A DNA stretch of 64,000 bases, taken from Lepidostoma basale. Taxonomy: Eukaryota > Arthropoda > Insecta > Trichoptera > Lepidostomatidae. Positions within the stretch are counted from its first letter, which is position 1. Each line of letters begins with the position of its first letter. This document shows positions 8,206 through 55,315 of the stretch, piece by piece. Below the pieces are notes generated by a model. The model was given only the letters and a program-made list of their open reading frames with translations. It searched no databases and had not been told where the DNA came from. Both the position numbers and the translations under genes were made by a program. The stretch lies in contig JAHDVF020000449.1 in assembly GCA_022606425.2 (NCBI GenBank), positions 124,001-188,000 on the forward strand, read 5' to 3'.

Positions 8206-8411
8206 GTAATTACCTGAACCCCAATAAGAACTTTATATTATTATTTAAAAAATTTAATTGATTCATAATATTTGTTATAACAAAATCATAATCGTTCCAA
8301 AATAAATCTTTATAACATCCGTCAAAACTTATCACATTTCATAATATTTCTCTTTTTCTTTTTTATATACTTTGCATATTCAACTATTATATTATACTTT
8401 AAAAAAATTAC

Positions 8412-8450
8412 ATATACATGTTTCGGACAAACAGTCCTTCTTCAGTGATA
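8412..8450 (-). ncRNA. hammerhead ribozyme motif, family B (core intact)
   Basis: Minus strand: CUGAAGA (fits CUGANGA), stem II GGAC...GUCC, GAAA, stem III ACAUGU, cleavage triplet GUA. Stem I is weak. Type I topology with a very short stem III. Confidence 0.65.
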
Positions 8451-8564
8451 CATATTATAAAGATTTTTCTTTTTAATATTAGAACATTGTTTACATGATC
8501 TGACAGATGTTATAAATCATTATATCTGTCAAAACTGATCATATTTGTAAACAATTTTATAATA

Positions 8565-8602
8565 TGACTGAGGAAGGACCGGGTTGTCCGAAGCATGTCT
8601 GA
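8565..8602 (+). ncRNA. hammerhead-like motif, family B (one core change)
   Basis: Plus strand: CUGAGGA, stem II GGAC...GUCC, GAAG instead of GAAA, stem III around CAUG, GUC. The A15.1 to G change should impair it. Confidence 0.6.
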
Positions 8603-8670
8603 TATATGTATATATTTTTTTTAAAGTTAGTGTTGTACTCGTAAATATAAAGTATAGAAAAAAGAAACGA

Positions 8671-9060
8671 CGTATAATTTAAAATTATTTTATCTCGTTT
8701 TAAATAAACGTTGTAGCGAGGGCCGCTGGAAATAGCTTCCTTTGCATTTGATGTGCACAATAATTTATAATTTAAATAGCCCAGGCAAACTCCCGCCTGC
8801 CCTTAATTCCGAAGAAGGTGCCGCTTGAAATATTCCCGAGATGAAAGCTAAAAAATGGACATCTTAATCAAGGAGCCGATTCAGTTTCCTCGCGTCTCGG
8901 GCCCGCGTTGTTCGTTCAATTGAAATATCAGAGCGACTTTGCCCTCTGGGGATATTTTTGACGTTTCTCTTGCCGTACCATAAATTGCGCGCGTATCGGT
9001 GATGTGTAATCACTACACAATTAAAAATAATTGTTTAGTCCACAAAATATTTAAAATAAT
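8671..9060. other. unique stretch, GC-richer at 8780-9000
   Basis: No repeat or frame recognised. Confidence 0.35.
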
Positions 9061-9240
9061 CATAACTGTTAAAATTTAAAATACTGTTATATATCACAAT
9101 TTCTTTTTATTTACCGAGTGTCGCGACAGCTGTTTCGCCAACCAATGTTGGCATCATCAGGTGTTACAATCAACTATTGTAGTCTTGAAATTCTGGTTTC
9201 AGGTAATACTTTCCAGTATTTTGGGGTTCATCCCTTAATT
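9061..9240. mobile_element. family A element (half copy)
   Basis: Shares its left flank (AACTGTTA..., ATCACAATTT) and ribozyme block with the complete palindrome at 43670-43930. Only one arm is present. Confidence 0.65.
9120..9165 (-). ncRNA. hammerhead ribozyme motif, family A (core intact)
   Basis: Minus strand: CAC-CUGAUGA, six-base-pair stem II (GCCAAC/GUUGGC), GAAA, palindromic stem III ACAGCUGU, GUC, then GCG. Stem I has one mismatch next to the site. Core fully matches the hammerhead consensus. Confidence 0.75.
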
Positions 9241-9299
9241 ATTGTTAACATTGCATTGAGCCCCACCAATTATCTTAATTACAGAATTCTGATCCATTA

Positions 9300-9475
9300 A
9301 CCTATCTATATTTGCTTGATTTTCGATTAATTTAATAATGCCTAAGATGGGAAAAACATGTCATTCCCATTACATATAATAAAACTTCTTGAAAACAGAC
9401 TTTTTCATTCGTATTAATTATTCAATATTGAGTTTTACATCATTGTTTAAGAAACAATAAAAATGTTTATTGTAT
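9300..9475 (+). mobile_element. family C palindromic element, right half
   Basis: Contains AATGCCTAAGATGGG..AAACATGTCA (decayed ribozyme-like arm), then AATAAAACTTCTTGAAAACAG and TTTTACATCATTGTTTAAG, the right terminal blocks of family C. Confidence 0.65.
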
Positions 9476-9565
9476 TAAATTTCATTTTGGGCGTAAATGA
9501 GCAATAAAATAAATAATAATCATTGTTGAAATCAAGTATGTGCTAAGATATTATAATATTAATGG

Positions 9566-9755
9566 GTTAAGTGGAGGGACGTCAGGGAGTTAATAGAAGG
9601 CAGCTGTCCTGGCTGCGGAACATTAAAAAGTGGACAGGAATTACAAGCGTTCTGAACCTGTTCCAAGTGGCGCAGGACACAGATACCTTTGCTGCAGTGA
9701 TCGCCAACGTTGGGGAGACCTGACACGGCACCGAAAGAAGAAGAAATTGATATCA
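9566..9755 (+). mobile_element. LINE group F 3' end
   Basis: Plus landmarks: GTCCTGGCTGCGGAACATTA, AGTGGACAGGAATTACAAG, TTGCTGCAGTGATCGCC, CGGCACCGAAAGAAGAAG. Same terminus as 55316-55935 and 43020-43215. 5'-truncated. Confidence 0.8.
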
Positions 9756-9797
9756 TTGAATTCATTTAGTTTATTTATTGATCATTAATATTAATGA

Positions 9798-9952
9798 CGA
9801 CGTTTGTTTTCTAGAAGTTTTATTTTATTTAATGAGAATTGCATGTTTCGCCTTGCTGCGGCATAATCAAATGACATTTGATAATGCCGCAGCAAGGCGA
9901 AACATGTCACTACCATAACATAATAAAACTTCTAGAAAGTAGACGTTTTAAT
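9798..9952. mobile_element. family C palindrome (nearly complete)
   Basis: Inverted repeat of about 75-bp arms: GTTTGTTTTCTAGAAGTTTT at the left and AAAACTTCTAGAAAG..GACG at the right, with GCATGTTTCGCCTTGCTGCG and CGCAGCAAGGCGAAACATG in the middle. Each inner arm resembles a decayed hammerhead (UUGAUAA core, GCC/GGC stem II, GAAACAUGUC). Confidence 0.8.
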
Positions 9953-10241
9953 TTGTATCTCAATAGAGACGAAGATGTAAATTGTGTACAATCTTAATAG
10001 ATAACGCTAGTGTAGAGGGAACTAAAAAATGTAAAGATAGGCGCAGCATCCTAGCATATATACAACTTCCAAAAAATTGTCAGCCGTGGTTGTTGTAAGA
10101 AGGTCGGAATGGGGAATGTTGTTAAACATAAAGCGATCGCTCAACGCAACCAATGACAGGTCATAAGTCCTGTAAGCGCCTCGACCACCATATTCTGTTC
10201 CCAGAAAAACAATTTACATCTTCGTCTCTATTGAGATACAA
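9953..10241. mobile_element. repeat H, MITE-like copy with 33-bp perfect TIRs
   Basis: Left end TTGTATCTCAATAGAGACGA... is the exact reverse complement of the right end over 33 bp. The body (GGAATGGGGAATGTTGT, CCAATGACAGGTCATAAGTC, CCACCATATTCTGTT) recurs at 19685, 38880 and 48240. Those copies lack the perfect left TIR. Confidence 0.85.
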
Positions 10242-10747
10242 TTAATCCTTATAAACAAAAATATATTTATCAATCATGCGAGTTCACTGAATACAATGTC
10301 AAATTTATAAACTGTGTAGTATAAATAATTTATTAGCACGAACAGAAGAAATTCCATTATGTTCGTTATTGTATGTAAGCGTGTTGATTTATGTAAGCGT
10401 AGATTTACAACCGACATTCAAATATTCAAATATGCCGAATCTGATCCATTATGCTCTTAAAATACGTTTTTAAAGACTAGAGAAGAGCAAAATCAACATT
10501 GTCGTAAATTCGATAATCCCCGGAACATTTTCCTTCTGATTTTCCGGGAATTCACACCGAAAAAGGGAAATTGTTCGACGTATTTTTAGGATGAAGGGTT
10601 ATAACATACGTGCTGGCAAAAACAAAAATCTTGCTATTTATAACGTTCCATAAATCATTTCCTCTAGATGTGAAATAACGCTATTTCTTGTTATTCCGAA
10701 ATGTTTGTAAAGTCGGAATCGGGGTGATTATATTGCTGAAACAACAC
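10242..10747. other. unassigned AT-rich stretch
   Basis: No repeat or frame recognised. Confidence 0.35.
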
Positions 10748-10850
10748 TTAACTAACTAACGAACCATCACGCAGTTCCACTGAAGGGGTAGCCATACAGG
10801 ATGGGCCGCCATACTGATCCTGATATACCTCTTAAGATTACTTCCTGAAA
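10748..10850 (-). mobile_element. LINE group W 3' end
   Basis: AACTAACTAACGAACCATCA followed by CTGAAGGGGTAG and a diverged GGGCCGCCATACTGATCCTG. Short inverted fragment. Confidence 0.75.
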
Positions 10851-10907
10851 CTTTTGTAAATTATAAACAATCTTTTATTTTGATAATGCTTTTAATTTTA
10901 CCTAATT

Positions 10908-11400
10908 ACTATGACTAAAAACCGGAAAATACCGATCAACTTGAAACGGAAAGTCTATGAACCCTGCGTTCTGCCGGTTAGTACTTATGGTCTTGAAACT
11001 GTTACATTGTCCAAACAAAGTGCAGAGAAACTACGAATGACCCAAAGAGCCATGGAAAGAGCCATGTAAGGATAAGCCTAAGAGACAGAGTCAGAAACGA
11101 TACTGTAAGAGAAAAAACTAAGGTCACTGACTTCATCCACCGGGCGGCGACTCTAAAAGGGCAGGTCACGTAGCCAGAAGCTCAGATGAAAAATGGACAA
11201 AAGACTGCTGACTTGGAGACCGTGGACTGCAAAGAGAAGTGCAGGTCGACCGCAACTACAGTAGAAGGATGATCTGAACAGACACGTCGGAATAACCTAG
11301 ATGCAGTCTGCACAAGACAGAGTGACATGGAAGCGAATGGAGGAAGCCTTTGTCTAGGAGTGGACGGGAATAGGCTGAGGAAGAAGAAGAAGAAGAAGAA
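10908..11400 (+). pseudogene. LINE group R fragment with (GAA)n tail
   Basis: Broken plus frame: RKVYEPCVLPVSTYGLETVT, then TQRAMERAM, LRDRVRNDTVREKTKVTDF, and RLLTWRPWTAKRSAGRPQL ending near ...FV.EWTG. These are post-catalytic motifs of RTE-type reverse transcriptases. A stop follows RAMERAM and there is a frame-breaking deletion near 11157. Ends in AGAAGAAGAAGAAG. Confidence 0.88.
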
Positions 11401-12035
11401 TTAATTTTAGAGATATAATTATTTTTATAACAGCTACGCGTAGGTCGCAAGTCGCACGAATATTTGTTTAGGTAGTGGGCTACCTTTATTGTACGCGGCG
11501 CACGGGCGTTTAATGGTTAATTATTATTGCTGAATACATCTATAAATTAATTATATTCTGTAGAAAAATATTTTCCCATTCTCCAGAGTATTCTACGTGT
11601 GTACCGTAGTAAAATAATTTATTACCTTTTATTTCCCTTTTTTATTATTGTTATTATTTTATTTGTAGCGTGCTTTTATTATTTTTCTCTCCGCTTGCCA
11701 AGTCTGCAAGTTCCTTCGAATTGTATCAATTTCGAGATTTTATGACCGAGGACTTAAAAGTGCCCCGCCCGCTATCCGAATTTAGTTCCTAGTCAATCAT
11801 TGCCTTTTTGTCGAGAATGGCCCGAGGAACGTGACGTTACTTTGAATTACAAGAGAACTTCAAATTGCTGATCCTTTTTTAGGGTTTCTATTATTTTCTG
11901 AAGATCACTCTTCTTTATTACCAAAATAAATCGAAGGATATTTCGCATTATGGCTTACACATCAAAATGTATTTACTCACAGTTTCCAATTCTAAGGTGG
12001 TCTTATTCACTTCCTTCCTAACTAACTAACTAACT
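11401..12035. other. unassigned stretch
   Basis: AT-rich, with some GC-richer sequence at 11690-11830. No feature supported. Confidence 0.35.
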
Positions 12036-12536
12036 ATCACAACAACAACAACAACAACAACAACGACAACAAACATCAAACCATCACGCCCTTTCTCCGC
12101 AGGGGTAGGCAGAGAGAATTGACCGCTACACTACTCTATCCTGGCACACCTCTCTAGATTCCTCGACATTCATACAACGAGTCATACACGCACGTCGATT
12201 CTTCCGACTTTTAACATGACCGACTTGTAAAATTTGATTAATTTGTTCATGCCATGTTTTCCTCGGTCTGCCTCGACTTTGTACTTCATTTACATCATTA
12301 ACGTATACTTTCTTAAACATTCTTTCTCCATCCATGCGCTCCATATGTCCGAACCAACGCAGCGATCCGTTCATAATTTTGTTCATAATACCATCTTCCG
12401 CTCTACATCTAATAATGCTACTTACTATTACGCCGCCTAATAATGGACCACCACATCGTTCTTTCCTGATATACTCATACCGTTTTCTCAACATTCATAC
12501 ATCGCGTCATGCACGCACGTCGATTTCGATAGTTCA
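12036..12536 (-). mobile_element. two fused group W fragments; 3' tail (GTT)n
   Basis: The first part (12036-12428) begins with a (CAA)n run, the complement of a (GTT)n tail, and matches the subgroup with CRAEDGIMNKIM and LRWFGHMERMDGERM. At about 12429 it switches to a second W copy (CACCACATCGTTCTTTCC..., CATGCACGCACGTCGATT). The minus frame 12126-12494 runs through both parts by chance. Confidence 0.85.
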
Positions 12537-12584
12537 CAACATTTTCTTTTTATTTCATTATGATTTTTAAAAATCTTCTATCAC

Positions 12585-12881
12585 AATAATGAAAGGATCA
12601 TTAACATGGTTTGGACACATGGAAAAGAATGAATGAAGTATGACCGGTAAAAAAAATTATACGTTAACGATGTTAATGGAACTAGAAAAGAGATGAAAAC
12701 GTGGCACGATAAAATAAATCATATTGAATGTCGGCCACGTGAAGAGTCGGAGAAATCGACGTGCGTTCATGACATGATGTATTAATGTTTAGGAATCGAG
12801 ACACGTATGTCATGAAAGAAAAGCGTGGCAGTCCATTATTTCTGTCTACCCCTTCGGGGGACGGCGTGATGGTTAGTTAGT
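12585..12881 (+). mobile_element. LINE group W fragment, (GTTA)n tail
   Basis: Begins at the MKGSL equivalent (ATGAAAGGATCA) and ends GACGGCGTGATGGTTAGTTA. Tail-to-tail with 12989-13389. Confidence 0.85.
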
Positions 12882-12988
12882 TTTTTTTTTTATCAAGATA
12901 TTTCCGTAAAATCATTAGATTACTTTTAAATAAACAAATTATTTTTACTGCAGTAGGTGTATGTAAGAACCACTCACGTTGTATTGTT

Positions 12989-14619: not shown

Positions 14620-14710
14620 ATCAAACATTTGATAATGCTTAGGCATGGCGAAACATGTCATTCCAATAAAATATAATAAAACTTATAGAAATCCATTTTT
14701 TCATTTGTAT
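14620..14710 (+). mobile_element. family C element, right arm
   Basis: CATTTGATAATGCTTAGGCA, GGCGAAACATGTCATTCC, then ATAATAAAACTTATAGAAA. The same inner arm and right end as at 9798-9952; the left arm is missing. Confidence 0.65.
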
Positions 14711-15040
14711 AAAGACTTTTTTTAATTTTCATTATAATCTTGTAATTTTTATTCTTGGCTTTCCAACCGAGGACATCAAGTCGCATCCATCGCCGAGGAG
14801 GAAAGAGAAGATGTTATTAAGCCTGTCTCGTAATAATTGATGGTCTAATTTGTACCGCTGCAGCCCTTCAACCCTTCCACCCCCGCCTATTGATGCCCGC
14901 GCATCACTCTTCCCTCACCTGCCGGGTAATGTTTTGCACTATTCATGCAAAGGGACACTTCCACGCGCAACCAGAGGGCTACGGTATACGAGTGCCTTGT
15001 AATGTTTTTTTTTTTCATATAAATATTCATCGGTCTAGTT
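14711..15040. other. unassigned stretch
   Basis: GC-richer centre (14850-14990); no frame or repeat recognised. Confidence 0.35.
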
Positions 15041-15846: not shown

Positions 15847-16070
15847 ATTTTTATAACATCTGTCAGATCATCTAAACAATTTTATAATATTTTCAAAATG
15901 TATCTTTATAATACGTATCACTGAAGAAGGACTGGTTGTCTGAAACATGTCTATGTTATTTTATTTTTTAATATAAGTGTTGTATATACAAAGTATATAA
16001 AAAGAAAAAGAGAAATAATGCGTCATAACAACACAAAGTATGGCGTATATAGAAGAAAATCCATAGCCAT
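15847..16070 (+). mobile_element. family B ribozyme element, half copy nested in a SINE
   Basis: Contains ATAACATCTGTCAGATCATC, AATTTTATAATATT, the ribozyme, then AAGTGTTGTATATACAAAGT and ATGGCGTATATAGAAGAAAA at its right end. ATGGCG(A/T)A(C/T)ATAGAAGAAAA also ends the copies at 35896 and 55215. Confidence 0.7.
15917..15956 (+). ncRNA. hammerhead ribozyme motif, family B (core intact)
   Basis: CUGAAGA (15921-15927), stem II GGAC/GUCU, GAAA (from 15942), stem III ACAUGU, GUC. Stem I pairing is weak in this copy. Confidence 0.65.
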
Positions 16071-21047: not shown

Positions 21048-21671
21048 ATGTCATTTTGTTTGTACTGATAAAATCGTATGTTTAAAAAAAACATATTTTA
21101 CAAGAATTGAAAGAGTGCAGTGAATTTATTTAGTGCTTTTAATTGCATGTATTATTTTGTAAGATGTCGACATTGTATCGCGTTTCGGTCTCAAGAGGTT
21201 GAGCTCACGGATGCTGGGTACATATTTTATAGGACTGTCGCCGTTGTGGAGCTAGGAGAGTCTGAGTACAGCGCCTGTTATTGCAGGCGGGCGAGGAAAT
21301 GTCCCCCTCACTGCGGAAAACCTGTAACTCCGATAAAACAATTTGGATGTTTAGTTCGCCGTAAAAGCCGATGGATGTGAGACGGATTGCGCCGTATTTG
21401 ATGCAATAAAATCTTTGATGTTTCATATAATATAATTTTACGGCATTATTATTAGGTCATCTTCAAATGTTTTTATTGGCCCGTTTTAACAATCCGCAAA
21501 GGTTACCTTTCAATAATATAATGTACCGTTTTTTGTTCGAATACCGTTGTGTTATGTTTCTCTACACCGTTTTCCGAATTTTTTTATATAGTTTCAAATA
21601 AATCGTGGCAAGACGGCAACATATACATTGTGATGATATGATAGCAACGGTGTGATCGGAGCCAAGGTAGA
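21048..21671. other. unassigned stretch
   Basis: An 86-codon plus frame (21120-21380) has several Cys but no recognised domain. Confidence 0.35.
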
Positions 21672-21900
21672 GACCGTGATCAGAACCGAAGTACAGACAG
21701 TGAGAGACCATGATCAGAACCGGAGTAGAGACAGTGAGAGACCGTGATCAGAACCGAAGCACAGACAGTGAGAGACCGTGATCAGAACCGAAGTAGAGAC
21801 AGTGAGAGACCGTGATCAGAACCGAAGTAGAGACAGTGAGAGACCGTGATCAGAACCGGAGAAGAGACATTGAGAGACGGTGATCAGAAGCGAAGAAGGG
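21672..21900 (+). repeat. 34-bp tandem repeat, six full units plus a part
   Basis: Unit GACCGTGATCAGAACCGAAG plus TAGAGACAGTGAGA. Starts at 21672, 21706, 21740, 21774, 21808, 21842 and 21876 (partial). Few differences between units. 34 is not a multiple of three, so no repeat protein is implied. Confidence 0.92.
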
Positions 21901-21940
21901 AATACGAGACAAACCAAATAATTTTTGACAAACTGAACAC

Positions 21941-22090
21941 TGTGGAATTCCATAATGACGATTTTTTTAAGAATTAAAACACTGTTTATTTCACATTATA
22001 GTTTATTTTCTCGACATGTTTCAAAGGCTTTACACTTTGATCATCGATATAAACTCTCTATAAATAGTTTAAATCTTTCTCCCGATGATG
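21941..22090. mobile_element. family D element with a hammerhead-like motif
   Basis: The minus motif at 22008-22045 reads CGAUGA, an AAAG/CUUU stem, GAAA, stem III ACAUGU, GUC, then GAG. U4 of the core is missing. The right side carries the mirrored CCCGATGATGAAAT. Related to 54741-54900. Confidence 0.55.
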
Positions 22091-22300
22091 AAATAGAGAA
22101 AGACCGAGGAAAACGTGGCAGGATCGATTAAATTAAATATTGAATTTCGGCCGCGTGAGGAGTCGGAGAAATCGAGGTGTGTGCATGACACGGTGTATGA
22201 ATGATGAGGAATCGAGAAAAGTATGTCAGGAAAGAAAAGTGCAGCATTCCATTCTTTCTGTCTAGCCCTTCGGAGAAACGGCGTGATGGTTAGTTAGTTT
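22087..22300 (+). mobile_element. LINE group W fragment, (GTTA)n tail
   Basis: AGAAAGACCGAGGAAAACGT, GAGGAGTCGGAGAAATCGAG, CTTTCTGTCTAGCCCTTCGG and GGTTAGTTAG. 5' truncation falls exactly at the end of family D. Confidence 0.85.
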
Positions 22301-22329
22301 ATCATCAGCCGTCTGTCATCCACTGCTGA

Positions 22330-25200: not shown

Positions 25201-25441
25201 TCTTGAATCGCTCTTTACACCATGACAGCATGAGCTAAATCGATGTAAAGGGGTATTACAGCTATCATAGTGATTCTCGTGATATGTGATAGGTAGCTGA
25301 TCTATCGCTATTTTATTGTCACGTGAATTCTACACCAGACCAAAGACAGTGTACCAATCACACTGCCCTCGCCGGGAATCGAACCCGGAACCTTCGGGGT
25401 GGCAGTCAATGCACTTACCACTCGGCCACGAAGGTCGTCAA
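25201..25441 (-). mobile_element. tRNA-derived SINE, type I, full length
   Basis: Minus strand: GACGACCTTCGTGGCCGAGT, B box GGTTCGATTCC, TTCACGTGACAATAAAATAG, then the type I end and the (AAT)n tail above. Confidence 0.9.
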
Positions 25442-27283: not shown

Positions 27284-27802
27284 GTTCATTTATAGATGTT
27301 TATAAAATCACTGTAGTTACTCTACAATAAATAAATAAATTTCCCTCTTCTTTTGTAAGAAAAGTAGTTTCGGGGTCCACGTGGGGACGTTATCGCATAC
27401 TTTAGGAGTCATAGACGTAGCCGCGCGGTACGTATCGGTATTCATATGTACATTACACGTGTCATCCGTCCGGCTGAGCTCGCCTACATTATTCATGCGC
27501 CTCTCCCGTCTCCGATAGCCCAACTTTTCCCGTACCGAGCAACAGTCCGGGATTACCGCCCAGCCCCGCCCCGGGATCCGAATCCCGGAGATTCAGGTTT
27601 GCATACGACACGTACACTTTGCCGTACGTGACCGAGGACACGGGAAGGTATTTTGCGAATGCGCTTCGGGACTGCTTTACTACGACACCCATCCCCCAAG
27701 ATCAGCACGGATTTGATTTCTTAATAAGGTTTTCTTGGATAATCCATTGTTTTAAACGAAATACCATAGCCCTTCAACATTATTAAATGTTTTAAGTTTA
27801 TG
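27284..27802. other. unique GC-rich stretch
   Basis: Several overlapping short frames (27317-27692) have no recognised motif. Confidence 0.35.
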
Positions 27803-28425
27803 TTAACAAAGGATGGGAGGGTGGAGAAGGATATTGAAAGAAGGGTTGGGGCAGGCAACAGAATAAATGGTGCACTTAAAGTTGTCATCGCAAACAAAAG
27901 CCCATCCAAAAAAGCCAAGATGGCAGTGCACAATGGTGTTCTTGTGCCGACCCTTATGTATGGAAGTGAAGCATGGAACTGGCAAAAGAAGGTTGAAAAT
28001 AGAATGAATGCAGTAGAAATGAGATCTCTAAGACGAATGTGTGGCAAATCTGTATATGATAGAGTGACAAATGCAAGTATAAGAAGTGAATGTGGTGCGA
28101 ATGAAAGTATTATTAACAAAATAAGGAAAGGGTCATTAAGATGGTTTGGACACATGGAAAGAATGAGTGAAGACAGAATGGTAAAGAAGGTATATGTAAA
28201 CGGCGTGAATGGAGCTAGAAAAAGAGGAAGGCCGAGGAAAACGTGGCACGATCAAATCAATCAAATATTGAATGTCGGTCACGTGAGGAGTCTGAGAAAT
28301 CGACGTGCGTGCATGACAAGATGTATGAATGTAGAGGAAGCGAGAGAAGTATGTCAGGACAGAACAGTGTGGCGTTCCATTCATTCTGCCTACCCCTCCG
28401 GGGAGACGGCGTGATGTTTAGTTAG
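27803..28425 (+). pseudogene. LINE group W copy with a 204-codon open frame
   Basis: Frame 27800-28414: ERRVGAGNRINGALKVV, AVHNGVLVPTLMYGSEAWNW, NAVEMRSLRRMCG, LRWFGHMERM, GRPRKTWHDQINQILNVGHV, RRACMTRCMNVEEAREVCQD, ending SAYPSGETA. This is the region after the reverse-transcriptase palm of an APE-type LINE ORF. It has no catalytic (F/Y)ADD box, so no enzyme is made. Ends GATGTTTAGTTAGTTAGTTA. Few lesions: relatively young. Confidence 0.92.
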
Positions 28426-28474
28426 TTAGTTAAGTTTAAAACACTGTTATTATACGTATCATCTATTATTTATT

Positions 28475-30599: not shown

Positions 30600-30869
30600 C
30601 GTGTAGAAAATGCTACACACCGAGTTTTTTTTACGTATACGAGTACAACAGGCCGCTTGAACCTAATTTCTGTAAACAATTTGTTTTTAAGTTGATTTAT
30701 TGATTCGCGTGACATGTAATAGGTAGCTAATCTATCGCCATTTTTATTGTCACGAGAATTCTATACCAGACCAAAGACAGTGTGACAATCACACTGCCAT
30801 CGCCGCGAATCGAACCCGGAACCTTCAGAATGCCAGTCAGAGCTCTTACCATTCTGCTACGAAGGATGT
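30600..30869 (-). mobile_element. tRNA-derived SINE, type II end
   Basis: Minus strand: B box GGTTCGATTC, CAGTGTGATTGTCACACTGT, body, then type II module (GTACAACAGGCCGCTTGAAC on the plus strand). More diverged than 6130-6393. Confidence 0.85.
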
Positions 30870-35394: not shown

Positions 35395-35620
35395 AACAAC
35401 ACTTACTTTATAATTAAAAAAAAATTAAAATACGAACATGTTTTGGACACAGAAGCCCTTCATCTATCATCATCAGTATACACAAAATAAATATTAAAAC
35501 CATTTTTTTTGTATTTATATTTTTTGTACAAAAAAAACAATAATACAGATGAAGGTCTTCTGTGTCCGAAACATGTTTATATTTTAAGTTTAAATTTGAA
35601 TAAAGTTAGTATTAATGTTT
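35395..35620. mobile_element. palindromic ribozyme-like pair (family B relative)
   Basis: Facing motifs at 35433-35475(-), with AAAAC instead of GAAAC, and 35543-35580(+), with CAGAUGA, GGUC/GUCC, GAAA, ACAUGU, GUU. Both have core changes. Arms share CGAACATGTTTTGGACACAG and CTGTGTCCGAAACATGTTTA. Confidence 0.6.
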
Positions 35621-35639
35621 CTTTTTTAATATACTTTGA

Positions 35640-35960
35640 TATTTTAAAACTAAGACTTAATTAAAAAAATATAAATTAAAAATTAAAAACAACCACGTTT
35701 CGGACAAACAATCCCGTCATCAGTGATATTATATAAATATTAATACTCTTATATAAATAAATAAAAATACGATTGTGGTCAGTGCTTGTTTGTCTGAAGC
35801 ATATTTGGTTGTTAATTTTTTTTATTTTTAATAAAGTGTGTGTTGTATACAAAGTATATAAAAACAGAAACATTGAACATCCGCAACACAAAGTTATGGC
35901 GAATATAGAAGAAAAGTTCGTGTTGTTTACAAAAAAAATAAACAGACGTTTTAATTCATT
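35640..35960. mobile_element. family B palindrome
   Basis: Left motif intact (next entry), right motif 35773-35815 decayed. Right flank AAGTGTGTGTTGTATACAAA, then ATGGCGAATATAGAAGAAAA from 35896, as in two other B copies. Confidence 0.65.
35690..35727 (-). ncRNA. hammerhead ribozyme motif, family B (core intact)
   Basis: Minus strand CUGAUGA (35717-35723), GG...CC stem II, GAAA, AC-GUG-GU stem III, UU cleavage pair. Stem I not evident. Confidence 0.5.
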
Positions 35961-38447: not shown

Positions 38448-38652
38448 TCTAATATAGTCCTTCCATCGTTTCCAAGGATGTCCTGAACAGACATGTCGGA
38501 ATAACATAGAGGTTCGCAAACCATCACACCGCGTCTCCCGCGGGGCGAAAAGAGATAGATGGAGTGCCGCATCGGTTAAAGTGTGACAGTCCATTCTTTC
38601 TGCCTACCCTTTCGGGTAGACGGCGTGATGGTTAGTTAGTTAGTTAGTTTGT
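38448..38652 (+). mobile_element. group R scrap followed by an SW element
   Basis: 38448-38513 matches the group R end (TGAACAGACATGTCGGAATA). 38517-38652 is the best SW copy: CATCACACCGCGTCTCCCGC, GGAGTGCCGCATCGGTTAAA, CAGTCCATTCTTTCTGCCTA, GGCGTGATGGTTAGTTAGTT. Confidence 0.75.
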
Positions 38653-38740
38653 GATATTATAATAGTGTTTTAAATTTTACAGTAATAATGTTGAAGTATC
38701 ATAGTGTTTCGGCCAAATCAATGGACTATGTACTTCTAAT
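38653..38740 (+). mobile_element. family A 3' flank
   Basis: TAATGTTGAAGTATCATAGT and GTTTCGGCCAAATCAATGGA, as after the A copies at 43880 and 49130. The ribozyme itself is missing. Confidence 0.6.
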
Positions 38741-39893: not shown

Positions 39894-40890
39894 GACGACC
39901 TTCGTGGCAGAGTGGTTACAAGCTCTGACTTCCATGCCGAAGGTCCTGGGTTCGATTCCCGGCGATGGCAGTGTGCAAGGTATGTGTCACACTGTCTTTG
40001 GTCTGGTGTAGAATTCACATGACAATAAAATGGATGCAAGTCAAATGACTTAATGATGAATGTCGGAAAGTCAAAGGTGATGGTTTTCGAAATGGAAGAG
40101 CAAATGACAGTTTGTAATAAAAGTGTGAACGAAGAGAACTTGGAACAGGTGAGGGAATTTGTGTATTTAGGTAGCATGTTCACAGCAGATGCCCGAACGG
40201 ATAGTGACGTCGAAAGAAGGGTTGGTGCGGGTAACAAAATGAATGGAGCTTTAAAAATAGTTATTGGAAACAAGAATTTATCAATGAAAGCGAAAACGGC
40301 CGTTCACAATGGAGTTCTGGTCCCAACCCTAATGTATGGAAGCGAAGCATGGAACTGGCAGAAGAAGGATGAGAGTAGAATAAATGCGATAGAGATAGAC
40401 AGAATCTCAAATGCTGATATAAGAAAGGAATGTAGAGCGGAAGAAGGTATTATGAACAAAATTATGAAAGGATCGTTGCGTTGGTTCGGACATATGGAAC
40501 GCATGGATGGAGAAAGAATGGTAAAGAAAGTATACGTTAATGATGTAAATGGGGTACGAAGTCGAGGCAGACCGAGGAAAACATGGCATGACCAAATTAA
40601 TCAAATTTTAAAGATTGGTCATGTTAGAAGTCGGAGAAATCGACGAGCGTGTATGACTCGTATGAATGTGGAGGAAGCTAGAGAGGTTTGCCAGGATAGA
40701 GTAGTGTGGCGGTCCATTCTCTCTGCCTACCCCTGCGGGGAAACGGCGTGATGGTTCGTTTGTTTGTTGTATAAAATGGAGATAGTTTGGCTACCTATCA
40801 CATGTCACGAGAATCAATATAATAGCTAAAAAATAAAAATTTGTATACAGTAATTGGGTCCAAACGACCTGTTGTGTACATAAAAAAAAA
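39894..40890 (+). mobile_element. tRNA-derived SINE, type II, interrupted by a group W copy
   Basis: Head with A box TGGCAGAGTGG, B box GGTTCGATTCC up to ATAAAATGGA (40025-40034). It resumes at a second ATAAAATGGA (40771-40780), then CACGAGAATCAATATAATAG, the type II end and A10. Confidence 0.9.
40035..40770 (+). pseudogene. LINE group W copy with a 232-codon open frame
   Basis: Frame 40053-40751 is the longest in the window. In order: MMNVGKSKVMVFEMEEQM (the stretch after the catalytic RT motif), EFVYLGSMFTADARTDSDVE, RVGAGNKMNGALKIVIGNKN, VLVPTLMYGSEAWNWQKKDE, LRWFGHMERMDGERMVKKVY, GRPRKTWHDQINQILKIGHV, ILSAYPCGETA. Compared with other W copies it lacks about 12 codons after SRINA (the RSLRRM block) and one Cys codon in TRCMN, both in frame. 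Flanked by the 10-bp duplication ATAAAATGGA. 5'-truncated, so no enzyme. Confidence 0.93.
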
Positions 40891-43665: not shown

Positions 43666-43736
43666 GAAATACTTTTTTTTCTAAACTGTTAAATTAATAA
43701 CTTTGTTTTTTGTACCACAATTGTATTTTATTTTAC

Positions 43737-43777
43737 GCGACAGCTGTTTCGTCAACCTATGTTGACATCATCAGGTG
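43737..43777 (-). ncRNA. hammerhead ribozyme motif, family A (core intact)
   Basis: CAC-CUGAUGA (43768-43774), stem II GUCAAC/GUUGAC, GAAA, ACAGCUGU, GUC-GCG. Stem I has one mismatch at the second pair. Confidence 0.75.
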
Positions 43778-43783: not shown

Positions 43784-43824
43784 TATGATGATGTCAACAT
43801 AGGTTGACGAAACAGCTGTCGCGT
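43784..43824 (+). ncRNA. hammerhead-like motif, family A (C3 changed)
   Basis: The mirror arm reads AUGAUGA in place of CUGAUGA, with the same stem II, GAAA, stem III and GUC. Loss of C3 should abolish cleavage. Confidence 0.6.
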
Positions 43825-43930
43825 AAAATAAAATACAACTGTGATACATAAAACAAAGTTATTAATTTAACAGTTTATAATGTTAAGGTATCATAGTGTT
43901 TCGGCCAAAACAACCGACTATTTTTTATTC

Positions 43931-46759: not shown

Positions 46760-46995
46760 TTTTTTTTATGCATACAACAGGTCGTTTGACCCAATTACTG
46801 GATACACTTTTATTTTAGCTATTATATTGATTCTCGTGACATGTGATAGGTAGCCAATCTATCGCCATTTTATTCTCACGTGAATTTTACACCAGACCAA
46901 AGACAGTGTGACAAGCACACTGCCATCGCCGGGAATCGAACCCGGGACCTTCGGTATGGAAGTCAGAGCTCTTACCACTCTGCTACGAAGATAGT
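46760..46995 (-). mobile_element. tRNA-derived SINE, type II
   Basis: Plus landmarks: CATACAACAGGTCGTTTGAC, CATGTGATAGGTAGCCAATC, CACACTGCCATCGCCGGGAA, TCGAACCCGG, CTTACCACTCTGCTACGAAG. Confidence 0.9.
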
Positions 46996-47440: not shown

Positions 47441-47479
47441 ACACCTTAAGATGGAGGCATCACCCGAAACATGTCGTGT
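47441..47479 (+). ncRNA. hammerhead-like motif, family G (degenerate)
   Basis: ACAC-CUUAAGA-UGGAGGCAUCACCC-GAAACAUGUC-GUGU. Stem I of four pairs (ACAC/GUGU), stem III ACAUGU and GUC are kept, but G5 of the core is U. Confidence 0.5.
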
Positions 47480-47589
47480 TTTTAATATTTTTTAATAATT
47501 AGTGGATTAAACGAAGTTATTTTCAATGTCCTTAGTACATTACTATGGAATTCCATAGTGTTAATGCCTTAGCGTTCAATAAGTTAATT

Positions 47590-48884: not shown

Positions 48885-49165
48885 TGTTTTCTGTACCACA
48901 CAAAAATAATAGAAATTGATAAAAATTATTCATTATAAACTGTTAAATTATAAAACTCTGTTTTGATGTATCACAATTTTATTTTCATTTTTCGCGACAG
49001 CTGTTTCGTCATAAATAGATTATTGTAACACCTGATGATGTCAACATAGGTTGACGAAACAGCTGTCGTGAAAAATAAAAATAAAATTGTGATTCATAAA
49101 AACTGAGTTTTATAATTTAACAGTTTATAATGTTGAATATCATAGTGTTTCGGCCAAAACAATGG
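48885..49165. mobile_element. family A palindrome, left arm shortened
   Basis: Left arm AAACTGTTAAATTATAAAAC, TTTTCGCGACAGCTGTTTCG loses its stem II (jumps to TCATAAATAGAT). The right arm is complete and ends TATCATAGTGTTTCGGCCAA. Confidence 0.85.
49029..49070 (+). ncRNA. hammerhead ribozyme, family A (core and stem I intact)
   Basis: CAC (49029-49031), CUGAUGA (49032-49038), stem II GUCAAC/GUUGAC with AUAG loop, GAAA (49056-49059), ACAGCUGU stem III, GUC, cleavage expected after C49067, then GUG, which pairs with CAC. All invariant positions match. Palindromic stem III suggests cleavage as a dimer, as reported for other very short stem III hammerheads. Confidence 0.8.
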
Positions 49166-49235
49166 ACCATTAAAAATTGTATACAGTAATTGGGTTCAAA
49201 TGACCAGTTGTATACAAAAATAATAAAAAAAAGGT
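49165..49235 (+). mobile_element. SINE type II 3' module alone
   Basis: AAATTGTATACAGTAATTGG, TTCAAATGACCAGTTGTATA, then A-rich. No head. Confidence 0.65.
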
Positions 49236-49550: not shown

Positions 49551-49602
49551 CTCTGTATTAAATAATTTACGAATGAAAACGTCTATTTTCTAGAAGTTTT
49601 AT

Positions 49603-51000: not shown

Positions 51001-51039
51001 CACAAGACCTAAATCAAATAGAAAAATATTTATTTAAGA

Positions 51040-51180
51040 TAATCTGATCATTTTACTAAAATTACTTCATGGATGTTCATTTTAAATTAAATAACGTGAT
51101 GTTTTTAATAACAACTTTAATTTTTAGTGAGTCGATGTCAGCCAGCCTGGCGAAACCGAATCATGTCGAAATAAAGATGT
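51040..51180 (+). mobile_element. family E element with a hammerhead-like motif
   Basis: ACTAAAATTACTTCATGGAT at the left; motif 51130-51169 GUCGAUGUCAGCCAGCCUGG, GAAACCGAAUC. Confidence 0.5.
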
Positions 51181-51184
51181 ACAA

Positions 51185-51400
51185 TAGAATTAGTTTATTA
51201 TTTTTCAAACAATGATGTAAAACGAATACGAATGAAAACGTCTGTTTTCTAGAAGTTTCATTATTATATATAGAATGACATGTTTCGCCTGTCTTTTTTC
51301 GCCTGTACATTTGATAATGCTTTAGACAAGCGAAACAGGTAATTTCCATTAATTATAATAAAACATCTAGAAAACAGACGTTTTCATTCATAACGTAGAT
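51185..51400. mobile_element. family C palindrome, complete
   Basis: TTTTTCAAACAATGATGTAA, GAATGAAAACGTCTGTTTTC at the left; CATCTAGAAAACAGACGTTT at the right. Inner arms GACATGTTTCGCCTGT and CAAGCGAAACAGGTAATT. Confidence 0.85.
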
Positions 51401-52325
51401 AGTTTTTTTCACATTTTCTTGAAAGAAATTTCAGCTCATTCTTATATCTCGCAGCGCTTTTGTTTATAAAATATGATAATCAATATTCTAATAATAGACA
51501 ACTGCGCGATAAACTATTATACATCCCCCGCGGCGTGCGGAGTGTGGAATGTGTATAGATATTGATAAAGATAACTTCCACACTTTTTCCATTAACTGTT
51601 CCAAAACATAAATTATAGTTTATTGCGCCCGAACACGCATGCGTCCATAACAACTCTATGCCCGATACCGTATGGATTATGTGCTTTTGTTTTATCGCAC
51701 TTGTTCCGCGAAACTTCGAAAAAATTACATCACAAACTGTTGTCGTAAATTTTATTTCCCTCGCCTGCCGTTTCGTGGCGGGGGAGAAAGCGCGCGTCCC
51801 GCGACCTACTATGGGGGCTCCTACGAGTCCTTTTTGGAGCTTATGTAAGTTCATTAATATCTTACGGCCCGTAATGAGTTGTAATGTTCCTTATAAAAAG
51901 CCAACTGACGCTCACCGTGAAAGGGAATTTCTAAGCGGCAGGGTGCAAGGAGTTGCGCGGGCCTGAAGGCATCCTTTGTTGGCGCGCGGAGGTGGCGCTG
52001 CTTAAATTTGCTAAATGTATTTGCACGGACAGCCCGTCGGCCTGCGCTTATTGGAGATGAATTATCTCAGCGCTTTAATAAATTTCCGTCGTTATTCATT
52101 CCGTCCTTTATCCAGAAACGGCGCTAATAAAAATTTTAATGTCACCGGGGAAATGTTTACTTTACGGCTCAATTCTGCCAATTATCTCGTTTTTATTCTA
52201 TAGAATATTCGCCTTCACTTTATGTTGTGGATTCGCAATTTGAACGAATAGATTTGCACTTCGTATTTTCGCAACACTTTATTTTTCTTTGCTTTCGTAT
52301 GAGGCACTTAATTAAAATATATATT
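51401..52325. other. unique GC-richer island
   Basis: Overlapping frames of 124(-), 102(+) and 62(+) codons without known domains. Possible regulatory DNA; not demonstrated. Confidence 0.35.
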
Positions 52326-53035
52326 ATACTAGCGGATCCGACAGACGTTGTCCTCATTGGCGGAACTCCGATAGAAGCCCAGAAGCCCGGCTTGCGTAAG
52401 AAATTTTGAATCAAAGCCCCCAAATCTAAGTAATCATGCCACCGCATAAACCAACAACCCACCAAATCACCTTATAACAATGTTCCCATTAGACGGAAAA
52501 GGAATAGCCGCAAGAGCTGAACCTCTGTAAGCCAGAAGAGGTTTTGATTCAAAATTTCTTACGCAAGCCGGGCTTCTGAGCTTCTATGGGACTAGCGTCA
52601 CTGGTTGTTCTGCCCGAACGTTGGCTTGTCTGCTATTAGCTGGTTCAGCAAAGTTTTTTAGATATTCGAATTTTCGATAAACTGTATACAAAATGACATT
52701 TGACATTGAGTTTGACTTTTAAAAAAAAATATTTTTACACTATACTTGCGTTATAGCGTGGCGTAGATTTAAATTTGCGCATGCTCAAACACAGAATTCG
52801 ACATCAGCGCCATCTATAGTAAACAAACATAGCTATGCATTATTCTCAGACGGTCAATTATTCGTGAACTTCCCAGAAGGTTTTAACGGTCACCTACGGG
52901 GTCCAATTATGAATCGAAACTATTCAGGGACCCACTCAAACACACACAAAATATTTCATCAAAATGGGTCCAGCCGTTTTGGAGTACAATTACATACGTC
53001 CGTACAGAAGAATTATAAATATATAAGATATGTTG
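52326..53035 (+). mobile_element. repeat X (non-autonomous element)
   Basis: Starts ACTAGCGGATCCGACAGACG and ends TTTTGGAGTACAATTACATA, CGTCCGTACAGAAGAATTAT. An inverted copy lies at 58815-59280. This copy has an internal 42-bp inverted repeat at 52374-52415 and 52543-52585 (GAAGCCCGGCTTGCGTAAGA). Confidence 0.78.
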
Positions 53036-53039
53036 TTGA

Positions 53040-53175
53040 ATTACATTATAACATCGCGAGCCAGATCGTTGTAAAGGGTGTATCTATTATATTGTATTTT
53101 ATGATATCTGTTAGGTAGCTAATCTCTTACCATTTTATTAACACGTTAATTCTACACTAGACCAACGATAGTGTG
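53040..53175 (-). mobile_element. tRNA-derived SINE, type I, 3' part
   Basis: ACATCGCGAGCCAGATCGTT, GATATCTGTTAGGTAGCTAA, TTCTACACTAGACCAACGAT. Head missing. Old copy. Confidence 0.8.
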
Positions 53176-53185
53176 ACACAAAAGG

Positions 53186-53224
53186 CTTCGGCCGGTTTCG
53201 GCTGCTCGCTACCATCTTCCGGAG
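53186..53224 (-). ncRNA. hammerhead-like motif, family F (degenerate)
   Basis: CGGAAGA-UGGUAGCGAGCAGCC-GAAACCGGCC. U4 changed, and the GUC triplet is now GCC. Confidence 0.45.
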
Positions 53225-53230
53225 AACAGA

Positions 53231-53829
53231 ATTTATAACTAAAAAAATATTTCTAATGGGTTTTTATATACGAGTATGTTATCTCGTTTTTGTTTGTCTA
53301 ATATTTGTACATTCCGAGCGGCGAATTTATTATTTTCGGGACAGTGCAATCAATTTTCATTTTATCTTCCGCGAATAAATCGATTTTATTGCGGCTCGAC
53401 ATTTCGTTCCCGGGCCCGCGGCGACACTGGAGTCTCCATTCTTCTTCATATGATCGGGTCTTATGTATGTTTTTATGTTATCGCGATAGTGGTAAAAAGT
53501 GACCTCTGGGAGCCATACGTTCTCTTCGACGTTTCTCGCTATCTGGACACATTACCGCTTCCCCGGTAGCATTATTCCGGCCCTATCTGCCCGATACATC
53601 GCCACCGGGTGGACCGGGAGTCTGGCATGAGGGCCGTAAACTGCTCCAAATGTTTACACCGCCGTAAATACCTGAATCTACTATTCAGACATCTTGTATC
53701 CGTGCCCCCTCGCTTTCATTTGTTAATTGCCACGTTACTTACCTTATTCATTATTCATCTGAAACATCTCCTCAGTTGACGAATTTATAGATATACAATA
53801 ATAATACAACGCAGAAGATACTGAAATGC
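53231..53829. other. unique GC-richer island
   Basis: 97- and 65-codon plus frames (53276-53569) without known motifs. Contains AATAAATCGATTTTATTGCG, rich in homeodomain-type AT cores. Confidence 0.35.
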
Positions 53830-54030
53830 GCAAGTGCAGAGGATGGATCCCACCAGAATCCCACACGCTGTGGCGCATTAGATTCCTGCCGGCTGCCGCA
53901 TGCCGTCCCCCCGGAAGACCGCCGAAGAGATGGAGAGATAGCTGGGAGTCAATCTCCCAAGATAGGCCAGCCTGATTTCAGGAACAGACCAAAGGTCTAT
54001 AAGGAGAAGAAGAAGAAGAATAAAATAATA
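53830..54030 (+). mobile_element. GAA-tailed LINE 3' end
   Basis: CAGAGGATGGATCCCACCAG, CGCCGAAGAGATGGAGAGAT, GGAACAGACCAAAGGTCTAT, AGGAGAAGAAGAAGAAG. Confidence 0.75.
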
Positions 54031-54071
54031 ATAATAAACGACGCTCTCAAAGTCATCACTGCAAAAAATAT

Positions 54072-54185
54072 ATAGGTACTGTCGAAATAAAGACAAAAGT
54101 GGAAGTAGTTAAAAAACATCGTTTTATTGAATTATTATTCAAAATAAACTTCCATCAAGAGATTTCAGTAAAATCATTTGGTCTA
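54072..54185 (+). mobile_element. family E right half
   Basis: ACTGTCGAAATAAAGACAAA, AGTGGAAGTAGTTAAAAAAC, AAACTTCCATCAAGAGATTT. No ribozyme arm. A small W scrap (GCTCTCAAAGTCATCACTGC) lies just before. Confidence 0.65.
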
Positions 54186-54740
54186 TTTTCAGTATTACGT
54201 AAGTACCTACACAGGTTCTATATGTTATATGGATTATTACATTTGCAGGAAGCCACATTTTTTGAGACGGCATGTCTAAATTGGATCCACTCTCGTGGAC
54301 CTCTTGCAGGTTGGAATCGACCCCTGGGGGTCGATATAGACCACTTTGAGAGTCATTGTTGTAGACCTTTCTATTTCGCATTTGCTTTTTATTCCTTTTT
54401 TTACTTTCGTCTTACAGAGTCTTCCCAATAAACATAGATAAGTGACAAATCACGCTTCGCTTGTTTTGCTCTTTTTATTTTTAAAATCAATATTTGTACG
54501 CGAAAATACGCCGCAAGACCGGTGGAATCCTCCGTGTTTCTTAGTATTCATATAAACAAAGTTAAAAATAGCTCAACTCCTCCGTGCCGGAGTGAAGTTA
54601 GCCCGAATAGCCACTGCGAAATGTTTCTTTTATTGTAAATTATTAATTTGAGTGTTTACACAATCCTTAGCGAACTTTCCCGCTATTGCACCGGACTTCG
54701 AGATTGTTAATAAAATATTTTTAATTTTTGATAAACTCAA
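54186..54740. other. unassigned stretch
   Basis: 110- and 80-codon frames overlap on opposite strands near 54100-54430; neither recognised. Confidence 0.35.
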
Positions 54741-54900
54741 GGCGTAATTTTTTTAGTAATTCTGTGAAATCATTTGAAATTGTTCTCGACATGTTGTGAA
54801 GGTTTTACGCTTTCATTATCGGGAGAACGATATATAGTAAACATATTTGTAAAACCTTCGAAACGTGTCGAGAAAAATAAATGCACAAGTGGAAAAACAT
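54741..54900. mobile_element. family D palindrome with hammerhead-like arms
   Basis: Minus motif 54784-54822 has ACAAC in place of GAAAC. Plus arm 54848-54875 keeps CUUC-GAAACGUGUC-GAG but lost its CUGAUGA side. Confidence 0.55.
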
Positions 54901-54965
54901 CAATGTTATCTTTTCTTTTTTATATACTTTGTATACAACACTAACTTAAAAAAAAATGAAATATC

Positions 54966-55002
54966 AGACATGTTTTGCACAACCCGGTCCTTCCTCAGAG
55001 TA
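54966..55002 (-). ncRNA. hammerhead-like motif, family B (G12 changed)
   Basis: CUGAGGA (54992-54998), GGACC...GGUUGUGC, AAAAC, AUGUC. G12 to A and a broken stem II suggest it is inactive. Confidence 0.55.
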
Positions 55003-55143
55003 ATATTATAAAGATATTTAAAATATAAAATTGTTTACAAATATGATCAGTTTTGACAGATGTTATCTGTTATCTTTTGTTGTAACATCTGTCAAAACTG
55101 ATCATATTTGTAAACAATTTTATAATATTTTAAATATCTTTAT

Positions 55144-55189
55144 AATATCACTGAGGAAGGACCGGGTTGTCCGAAACATGTCTGATATT
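55144..55189 (+). ncRNA. hammerhead ribozyme, family B (core and 7-bp stem I intact)
   Basis: AAUAUCA (55144-55150), CUGAGGA (55151-55157), stem II GGAC/GUCC, GAAA (55173-55176), ACAUGU stem III, GUC with cleavage after 55182, then UGAUAUU (55183-55189), the exact complement of AAUAUCA. All core positions fit CUGANGA/GAAA/NUH. Best candidate in the window. Confidence 0.85.
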
Positions 55190-55315
55190 TAATTTTTTTT
55201 TTACAACTCAAAGTATGGCGAACATAGAAGAAAATCAATGGTATCATTCATAAAAAAAAACGTTAAAATGAGTTAATGATGTATCCATAATATAAATTAT
55301 TACTCAAATGTAACA

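What the first reader, a model, noticed from the sequence alone, without database searches (positions are those of the whole stretch)
8345..55235. About twenty hammerhead-ribozyme-like motifs spread over several unrelated repeat families
Repeats that differ in most of their sequence share one plan: C(U)GANGA, a short GC stem, GAAAC, two bases, then G-U-C. The short stem III is palindromic in each family: CAGCUG (A), CAUG (B, C, D), CGUG (D), CCGG (E, F). Covariation of the palindrome with the core kept is what selection for a ribozyme would give. Hammerheads with tiny stem III are known from Penelope-like elements and animal retrozymes; the variety of families within one 64-kb window is striking. 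Seven copies keep an intact core: 8412(-), 9120(-), 15917(+), 35690(-), 43737(-), 49029(+), 55144(+).
Basis: partly seen in the sequence, partly recalled or inferred. Interest (0 to 1): 0.92.

Follow-up and report, generated by a model that had tools for sequence, protein, structure and literature searches.

The report
Ribozyme-bearing retrotransposons inserted as lopsided palindromes
The hammerhead-ribozyme-like motifs in this animal DNA sit in the leader sequences of several families of (predicted) Penelope-like jumping genes, many of whose copies lie as head-to-head pairs with one short and one long end, a pattern that likely records copying started on both DNA strands at two different points of the element's RNA.

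Summary
The seven "intact" motifs are at the stated places. A covariance model built only from copies elsewhere in the genome finds 15 window sites at E<0.01, 13 of them above the best hit in 435 kb of control DNA. Rfam's hammerhead models find none. The "unrelated families" share the leader plan of Penelope-like elements (PLEs): 25 of 71 F1 arms lie directly behind RT/GIY-YIG coding sequence, and the window holds such a coding fragment at 7921-8199. Stem II covaries; two families carry the compensatory U3-A8 core pair. PLE hammerheads, head-to-head PLE copies and natural U3-A8 pairs are already in print. What I did not find in print is how strict the end rule is: one arm ends at a short site, its partner about 40-47 nt further, in 63 of 69 classifiable pairs and 8 of 8 in a further family. 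32 of 96 pairs are flanked by exact repeats of 12 nt or more (control 0.23%). This favours coupled two-strand target-primed reverse transcription over the published self-priming idea. Self-cleavage is untested; family F seems to have lost the canonical core.

The parts
43679..43774 (-). Family A arm, short (S) end; hammerhead 43746-43774
   Evidence: (48.2 bits)
43786..43922 (+). Family A partner arm, long (L) end; degenerate hammerhead 43785-43813
48931..49011 (-). Family A arm, S end, part of the hammerhead lost
49032..49177 (+). Family A partner arm (used as the family A query, so its L end is set by comparison with 43786-43922); hammerhead 49032-49067, cleavage predicted after 49067
   Evidence: (49.6 bits)
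9047..9160 (-). Family A single arm, end unclassed; hammerhead 9132-9160
38649..38729 (+). Family A partial arm without hammerhead
54906..54998 (-). Family B arm, S end; hammerhead 54972-54998 decayed
55027..55121 (+). Palindromic centre of the family B pair
   Evidence: (long hairpin)
55151..55239 (+). Family B partner arm with tail 55203-55239 (scored unclassed by script because of a gap); hammerhead 55151-55182, 7-bp stem I
   Evidence: (46.6 bits)
8345..8445 (-). Family B arm; hammerhead 8420-8445
8568..8678 (+). Family B partner arm; scored S, so this pair (SS) breaks the rule
15921..16059 (+). Family B arm with tail (used as the family B query); hammerhead 15921-15951
35610..35723 (-). 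Family B arm, S end; hammerhead 35697-35723 (CGUG stem III)
   Evidence: (16.6 bits)
35787..35915 (+). Family B partner arm, L end
9781..9870 (-). Family C arm (core UUGAUUA); SS pair with the next
9878..9958 (+). Family C partner arm (core UUGAUAA)
   Evidence: (31.1 bits)
9332..9478 (+). Family C arm running past the long zone, end unclassed
14629..14713 (+). Family C arm, S end, core UUGAUAA
51182..51289 (-). Family C arm, end unclassed
51311..51392 (+). Family C partner arm, S end, core UUGAUAA
63268..63357 (-). Family C arm, S end
63387..63529 (+). Family C partner arm, L end
47445..47585 (+). Family E arm, L end; degenerate hammerhead
   Evidence: (31.7 bits)
21919..22045 (-). Family F arm, L end, degenerate core
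   Evidence: (19.9 bits)
7921..8199 (+). Decayed fragment of PLE GIY-YIG endonuclease coding sequence (72% identical to F1 over 95 aa, one stop)

Best explanation
The motifs are leader (pseudo-LTR) sequences of several families of predicted Penelope-like retrotransposons, often present as head-to-head pairs with one short and one long 3' end, which were likely made by target-primed reverse transcription on both strands of a staggered cut, one strand starting at a short site and the other at a long site of the element RNA, and whose hammerheads are predicted to self-cleave as weak or dimeric ribozymes. Shown: F1 copies carry RT and GIY-YIG coding sequence that ends about 117 nt before the hammerhead; the 58 F1 arms that passed the filter end in one of two zones (+81 to +96, or +125 to the query's end at +128, counted from the hammerhead start); paired arms use different zones in 63 of 69 classed pairs; the inner ends of the two arms differ by more than 20 nt in 18 of 24 F1 pairs; flanking repeats of 9 nt or more are most often 12 nt long; partner arms resemble each other more than shuffled partners. 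Inferred: the two zones are RT start sites; both arms come from RNA of one source locus; many arms stop at -11 to -16 because the RNA 5' end lies there; the ribozyme was uncleaved in the RNA that was copied.
For: PLE identity: long F1 pairs with a GIY-YIG ORF; PF00078 31.6 bits (cut-off 29.6), PF01541 22.3 bits (cut-off 22.6, just under); 85 homologues, named insect ones among them from Harmonia, Photinus, Phthorimaea, Coccinella, Onthophagus and Schistocerca; coding sequence directly behind 25 of 71 F1 arms (20 loci) and 1 of 74 F arms (one search had counted 27 because some arms had two hits) and upstream of one arm each in 2 of the first 6 G loci. End rule: F1 23 of 24 pairs; six families 63 opposite, 3 SS, 3 LL of 69 classed pairs, 27 further pairs unclassed (P 2e-13 if ends were independent); family G 8 of 8 classed pairs, 3 unclassed. 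Flanking repeats: >=12 nt in 32 of 96 pairs against 0.23% of mismatched flanks; of the 40 pairs with >=10 nt, 38 are opposite-ended, 2 have an unclassed end, none is SS or LL. Partner-arm divergence 0.0057 against 0.0170 shuffled, 0 of 3000 as low (18 F1 pairs). Unequal inner ends. Ribozyme: stem II pairs in 96% of cells, 3 of 4 pairs with double changes; 3-8 pair CG 37, UA 7, UG 1 of 45.
Against: 6 of 69 classed pairs have equal ends; in the window itself 4 opposite, 2 equal, 5 unclassed. Only 191 of 349 arms lie in the 96 pairs; 158 are unpaired (59 of 71 F1 arms are paired). One-armed insertions exist: of 8 unpaired F1 arms, 3 (L164, L149, L152) have a 10-12 nt repeat right at the arm's 5' side. 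9 of 20 G loci show no partner within the fetched stretch, and 4 of the 20 had been chosen as listed outward pairs. In family G one unclassed pair (L210) would count as SS with a cut-off one base wider. Three of the 63 opposite pairs (window A 48931-49177, L184, L126) and one of the 8 in G (L205) contain the query copy itself, whose L end is set by where I cut the query. Loci were found through the hammerhead motif, so arms without it are under-sampled. Stem II covariation is inflated because the sequences were picked with >=3 stem II pairs; stem I, pair 20-30 and the 3-8 pair were not. Families A and C are tied to PLEs only by plan. In family F the unselected core is mostly CCGAURA, and the CUGAUGA copies there were picked by my pattern. 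No arm of 58 starts at the cleavage site (34-36), so the copies give no sign that the ribozyme cuts in vivo.
Confidence: 0.72

Rival explanations
1. Self-priming on an antisense template (the reading offered for bdelloid Penelope copies): a folded-back strand is copied from its inner end outwards, giving a head-to-head hairpin that is then inserted.
For: Head-to-head pairs with palindromic junctions, as in PMC3846280 (passages and Discussion read); in 6 of 24 F1 pairs the inner ends agree within about 15 nt.
Confidence: 0.1
2. Miniature DNA transposons with terminal inverted repeats that happen to contain a hammerhead-like sequence.
For: Inverted repeats, many with short flanking duplications.
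Against: The two ends differ in length by about 40-47 nt, arms have variable inner truncation, and the longer F1 copies encode a PLE reverse transcriptase and GIY-YIG nuclease.
Confidence: 0.04
3. Animal retrozymes: short non-autonomous tandem repeats moved as circular RNA made by hammerhead cleavage.
For: Element size of roughly 200-350 bp for the small pairs and type I hammerheads resemble PMC7229834 (abstract and part 1 of 3 of Results read).
Against: Copies are outward-facing inverted pairs; F1 ends lie about 50-95 nt past the predicted cleavage site, not at it; coding copies carry the same leader.
Confidence: 0.05
4. The hammerhead resemblance is inherited leader sequence with no present ribozyme function; pairing reflects common descent.
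For: No Rfam hit; weak monomer folds; family F core mostly CCGAURA; no F1 arm of 58 begins at the cleavage site.
Against: Stem II, stem I and the 3-8 pair change together between families while GAAA and the two stem III pairs stay fixed; unselected family B arms keep the core in 15 of 16.
Confidence: 0.25

Closest known systems
Poseidon PLE of Anolis carolinensis (PMC11167929, abstract and main text read, Methods not)
   Same: RT plus GIY-YIG protein; hammerhead at the ORF start (here F1 only); two adjacent internal RT start sites whose interval is the genomic tail; cuts and extends both DNA strands in vitro.
   Different: There no difference of start site between strands was seen in vitro and copies are described as tandem or partial-tandem; here the two ends of one insertion are different sites in 63 of 69 classed pairs.
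Penelope families of the bdelloid Adineta vaga (PMC3846280, passages and Discussion read)
   Same: Head-to-head inverted pLTRs, a 31-bp tail on one of them, 8-10 bp target duplications.
   Different: Low copy number, tail called optional, the word hammerhead absent, self-priming proposed; here 69 classed pairs show a near-strict rule, with duplications of mostly 12 nt.
Minimal type I hammerheads of PLEs (Cervera and de la Pena 2014; Lunse et al. 2017: seen only as references and as described in passages of PMC7761336 and PMC6155905)
   Same: Core, tiny or absent stem III, occurrence in pseudo-LTRs, proposed action as dimers.
   Different: At least seven leader types in one genome (A, B, C, E, F, F1, G), two of them with U3-A8.
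Natural U3-A8 hammerheads (PMC3088659, passages read)
   Same: C3-G8 replaced by U3-A8 in natural ribozymes.
   Different: Here it is the usual form in two PLE-like families, one with about 1,500 copies.

Membership tests
Penelope-like element | Reverse transcriptase domain | tested here: met
   PF00078 31.6 bits, cut-off 29.6, in the F1 ORF of L127
Penelope-like element | GIY-YIG endonuclease domain behind the RT | tested here: met
   PF01541 22.3 bits against cut-off 22.6, so just under by itself; homologues P0003, P0010, P0015 carry both domains
Penelope-like element | Inverted pLTRs, tail on one arm, short target duplications | tested here: met
Penelope-like element | Full-length copies in tandem (pLTR-ORF-pLTR) | not tested
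   no full-length tandem copy was sought
Penelope-like element | Coding copies for each leader family A, B, C, E, F, G | tested here: inconclusive
   coding sequence adjoins 25 of 71 F1 arms and 1 of 74 F arms and arms in 2 G loci; B shares F1's tail and E shares F's; none found for A, B, C or E
Type I hammerhead ribozyme | Core CUGANGA...GAAA and NUH cleavage triplet | tested here: met
   window families A and B, genomic F1 and E; C and G read UUGAUAA and unselected F mostly CCGAURA, so not met as such there
Type I hammerhead ribozyme | Three helices with covariation | tested here: met
   stems I and II covary; the two stem III pairs tested never vary
Type I hammerhead ribozyme | Rfam hammerhead model at gathering score | tested here: not met
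   no hit at gathering score, none at E<=10
Type I hammerhead ribozyme | Self-cleavage | not testable with these tools
   needs in vitro transcription
Metazoan retrozyme | Head-to-tail repeats bounded by hammerheads | tested here: not met
   no head-to-tail dimer seen among the 40 window arms; pairs face outwards; F1 ends lie past the cleavage site
Terminal-inverted-repeat DNA transposon | Matching termini and transposase | tested here: not met
   ends differ in 63 of 69 classed pairs; F1 coding copies encode RT-EN

The most novel reading that the evidence does not exclude
A Penelope RNP is a built-in two-ended insertion machine: its two enzyme subunits start reverse transcription at two different, fixed sites about 40-47 nt apart in the RNA leader, one on each strand of a 12-bp staggered cut, so that a typical insertion is an inverted pair with one short and one long end; the hammerhead between promoter and start sites decides how much of the element each strand copies.
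Probability: 0.5. Interest if true: 0.78.

Novelty: new member of a known kind. Interest (0 to 1): 0.6.

Why it matters
How Penelope-like elements insert is named as an open question in the two papers on them that I read. A per-insertion rule that pairs two different RT start sites across the two strands would explain the odd 'optional tail' and the head-to-head copies with one mechanism, predicts what a dimeric RNP must do, and can be tested directly with the existing in vitro system. Several leader families in one genome, two with the compensated U3-A8 core pair, also give a natural mutagenesis set for the minimal PLE hammerhead, whose role is unknown.

Tried and rejected
Rfam at gathering and at E<=10: no hammerhead; the microRNA-precursor hits there largely fall on the palindromes. 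'Family C is a broken hammerhead': rejected as the simple reading, because U3 and A8 occur together in 39 of 45 copies, and a second family G with the same core has 761+747 places within 2 mismatches, control 0, while the C3-G8 form of the G motif has 0 exact places. The two single-change forms could not be counted. 'U3-A8 is new in nature': rejected after reading passages of PMC3088659. 'Arms of family F differ systematically (CT/CC)': set aside as an artefact of my selecting CTGANGA; apart from two gap-prone positions (58, 59) no other site follows it. 'Arm starts record ribozyme cleavage': 0 of 58 F1 arms start at 34-36, so no support. Phage collection: no match for window 55027-55200. Viral contigs: 116 stretches with the bare pattern, used only as a control, 52 of them given to the model. 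Rows dropped: L001-L008 (duplicates of later loci) from the arm counts; BLAST pieces under 35 nt; F1 arms under 83% identity, ending before +60, or in the window; pairs with an arm under 94%; F arms under 80%. A comparison with random genomic stretches was planned and not done.


Full report
WHAT WAS CLAIMED AND WHAT IS THERE. The seven motifs called intact are present at the stated places. The window is 64 kb of contig C1052 of a 768.8-Mb eukaryotic genome, unnamed here. Rfam finds no hammerhead. I therefore aligned 45 of 61 distinct hammerhead-like copies from other parts of the genome, built a covariance model from them and searched the window: 18 hits at E<=1, 15 at E<0.01, best 49.6 bits. 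As a control I searched 52 of the 116 viral-contig stretches (434,571 bases), each of which had been fetched because it contains the same bare pattern; the best of 38 hits was 22.9 bits, and 13 window hits lie above that. In the whole genome the pattern with a 17-base insert occurs 714 times, its reversed control never.

COVARIATION. In the 45 sequences stem II is paired in 96% of cells with double changes at three of four pairs; stem I (three inner pairs) in 78%, all three with double changes; the core pair 3-8 is CG in 37, UA in 7, UG in 1; the two stem III pairs never vary. The sequences had been picked with at least three stem II pairs and with C or T, and G or A, at positions 3 and 8, so stem II is biased and CA was possible but not seen. 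Without picking for pairs, 21 of 38 distinct inserts have four or more consecutive pairs, shuffled mean 1.3. Hammerhead numbering and the NUH rule are recalled, not from a call.

WHAT THE ELEMENTS ARE. Many of the motifs lie in palindromes whose two hammerheads point outwards. In the genome the same outward pairs flank up to 2 kb, and that sequence encodes the end of a reverse transcriptase and a GIY-YIG endonuclease; the closest named relatives are in insects. In family F1 the frame ends about 117 nt before the hammerhead, counted for 25 of 71 arms in 20 loci, and the AUG inside stem III opens the frame MSEKSVIKCCDTKLSKSNSNMNPQHKVMANIEE, so the hammerhead overlaps a predicted ORF start, much as in the Anolis PLE. 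In the copies of families B, E and F that I translated that frame is closed. The window itself holds a decayed endonuclease fragment at 7921-8199. Family B shares the F1 tail and E shares the F tail; A and C are assigned by plan alone. Six family leaders give 349 arms in 313 kb of fetched sequence and window, 40 of them in the window.

THE END RULE. Of the F1 arms, 58 passed the filter (83% identity, end past +60); 28 end at +81 to +96 and 30 at +125 to +128 from the hammerhead start, +128 being the end of the query (the divergence of flanks just after that point is seen). Paired arms use different ends: 23 of 24 F1 pairs. Over six families, 84 pairs found by script plus 12 long F1 pairs that I added by hand make 96; 69 have both ends classed, 63 opposite, 3 short-short, 3 long-long; 27 are unclassed. 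With independent ends the chance of 63 or more of 69 is 2e-13, taking pairs as independent events; 3 of the 63 include a query copy, whose long end is set by my cut. The pairs hold 191 of the 349 arms; 158 arms are unpaired, among them fragments, single insertions, and perhaps arms whose partner is shorter than the 35 nt that the script needs. I then took a family not used in those counts (G): 20 loci, 4 of them chosen as outward pairs, 11 pairs, 8 classed, 8 opposite; one of the three unclassed (L210) would be short-short with a slightly wider cut-off; 9 loci showed no pair. In the window alone: 4 opposite, 2 equal, 5 unclassed.

FLANKING REPEATS. Exact repeats of 12 nt or more flank 32 of 96 pairs, against 0.23% when left and right flanks of different pairs are compared; among repeats of 9 nt or more the commonest length is 12. 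Of 40 pairs with 10 or more, 38 are opposite-ended and 2 have an unclassed end; none of the 6 equal-ended pairs is among them. So the exceptions may be neighbours or rearranged copies rather than single insertions (inference). Three of 8 unpaired F1 arms are one-armed insertions with their own 10-12 nt repeat.

WHY TWO STARTS RATHER THAN SELF-PRIMING. The inner ends of the two arms differ by more than 20 nt in 18 of 24 F1 pairs; of the 17 opposite-ended ones among these the short-ended arm is the longer copy in 12 and the long-ended arm in 5. Partner arms are nevertheless more alike than shuffled partners: 0.57% against 1.70% in 18 F1 pairs, 0 of 3000 shuffles as low, and in 15 F pairs 14 of 3000 as low. 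Two reverse transcriptions primed from the two sides of one staggered cut, on RNA of one source, with independent stops and end joining, give all of this. Self-priming from a folded antisense strand, proposed in PMC3846280 (passages and Discussion read), gives arms equal at the centre and equal outer ends. PMC11167929 (main text read) shows two adjacent internal RT starts, a tail that equals their interval, and extension on both strands, with no difference of start between strands in bulk. The pairing of different sites within one insertion is what the present data add. Searches and the papers read did not show it stated; older subscription papers on Penelope are not in the library, so it may be in print there.

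RIBOZYME STATUS. Eleven of 58 F1 arms start at -16 to -11 and several F pairs meet near -13 to -15, which may be the RNA 5' end; no F1 arm starts at the cleavage site. So the copied RNAs were apparently not cut at their own hammerhead, in line with the Anolis work. Unselected arms keep the canonical core in 15 of 16 (B), 5 of 6 (E) and 7 of 11 (A) cases; C reads UUGAUAA in 19 of 34; of 9 arms assigned to F, 5 read CCGAURA. Family G, with UUGAUAA, has 1,508 places within two mismatches; the same motif with C3 and G8 has none. Natural U3-A8 was reported in 2011 (PMC3088659, passages), so this is a further and abundant case. Folding of single leaders is clearly exceptional only for one F copy of six leaders tested, consistent with, but not proof of, the dimer idea described in PMC7761336 (passages).

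VERDICT. A good observation, mostly right in kind: PLE hammerheads, already known as a class. The more informative finding is the end rule. 

Noticed in passing
window 4524-4731, 12647-12887, 22055-22303, 28183-28431, 40523-40768, 61050-61298 and others: At least 13 copies of a LINE-like 3' end, many with GTTAGTTAGTT tails; ORFs at 27800-28414 and 40053-40751 overlap it and gave no Pfam match.
   Followed up: partly
window 6134-6206, 39898-39970, 46920-46993, 30795-30866, 25364-25435: tRNA-like sequences (three Gly-TCC and one Ala-GGC by ARAGORN; one Rfam tRNA), perhaps SINE heads.
   Followed up: no
window 21635-21940 and 59657-60318: A 34-bp tandem repeat and a 210-bp tandem repeat of about three copies.
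   Followed up: no
L131:462-542 and L159:2939-2986: Further hammerhead-like motifs with stem III palindromes ACTAGT and ACCGGT, the first as an outward pair, perhaps more PLE families.
   Followed up: no
L150:2310-2449: The one long-long F1 pair has a run of A at the short end site of its right arm, as if synthesis had paused there.
   Followed up: no
L152:2052-2145: A one-armed insertion with about 9 nt of hammerhead sense sequence between target repeat and arm, a possible template-jump scar.
   Followed up: no
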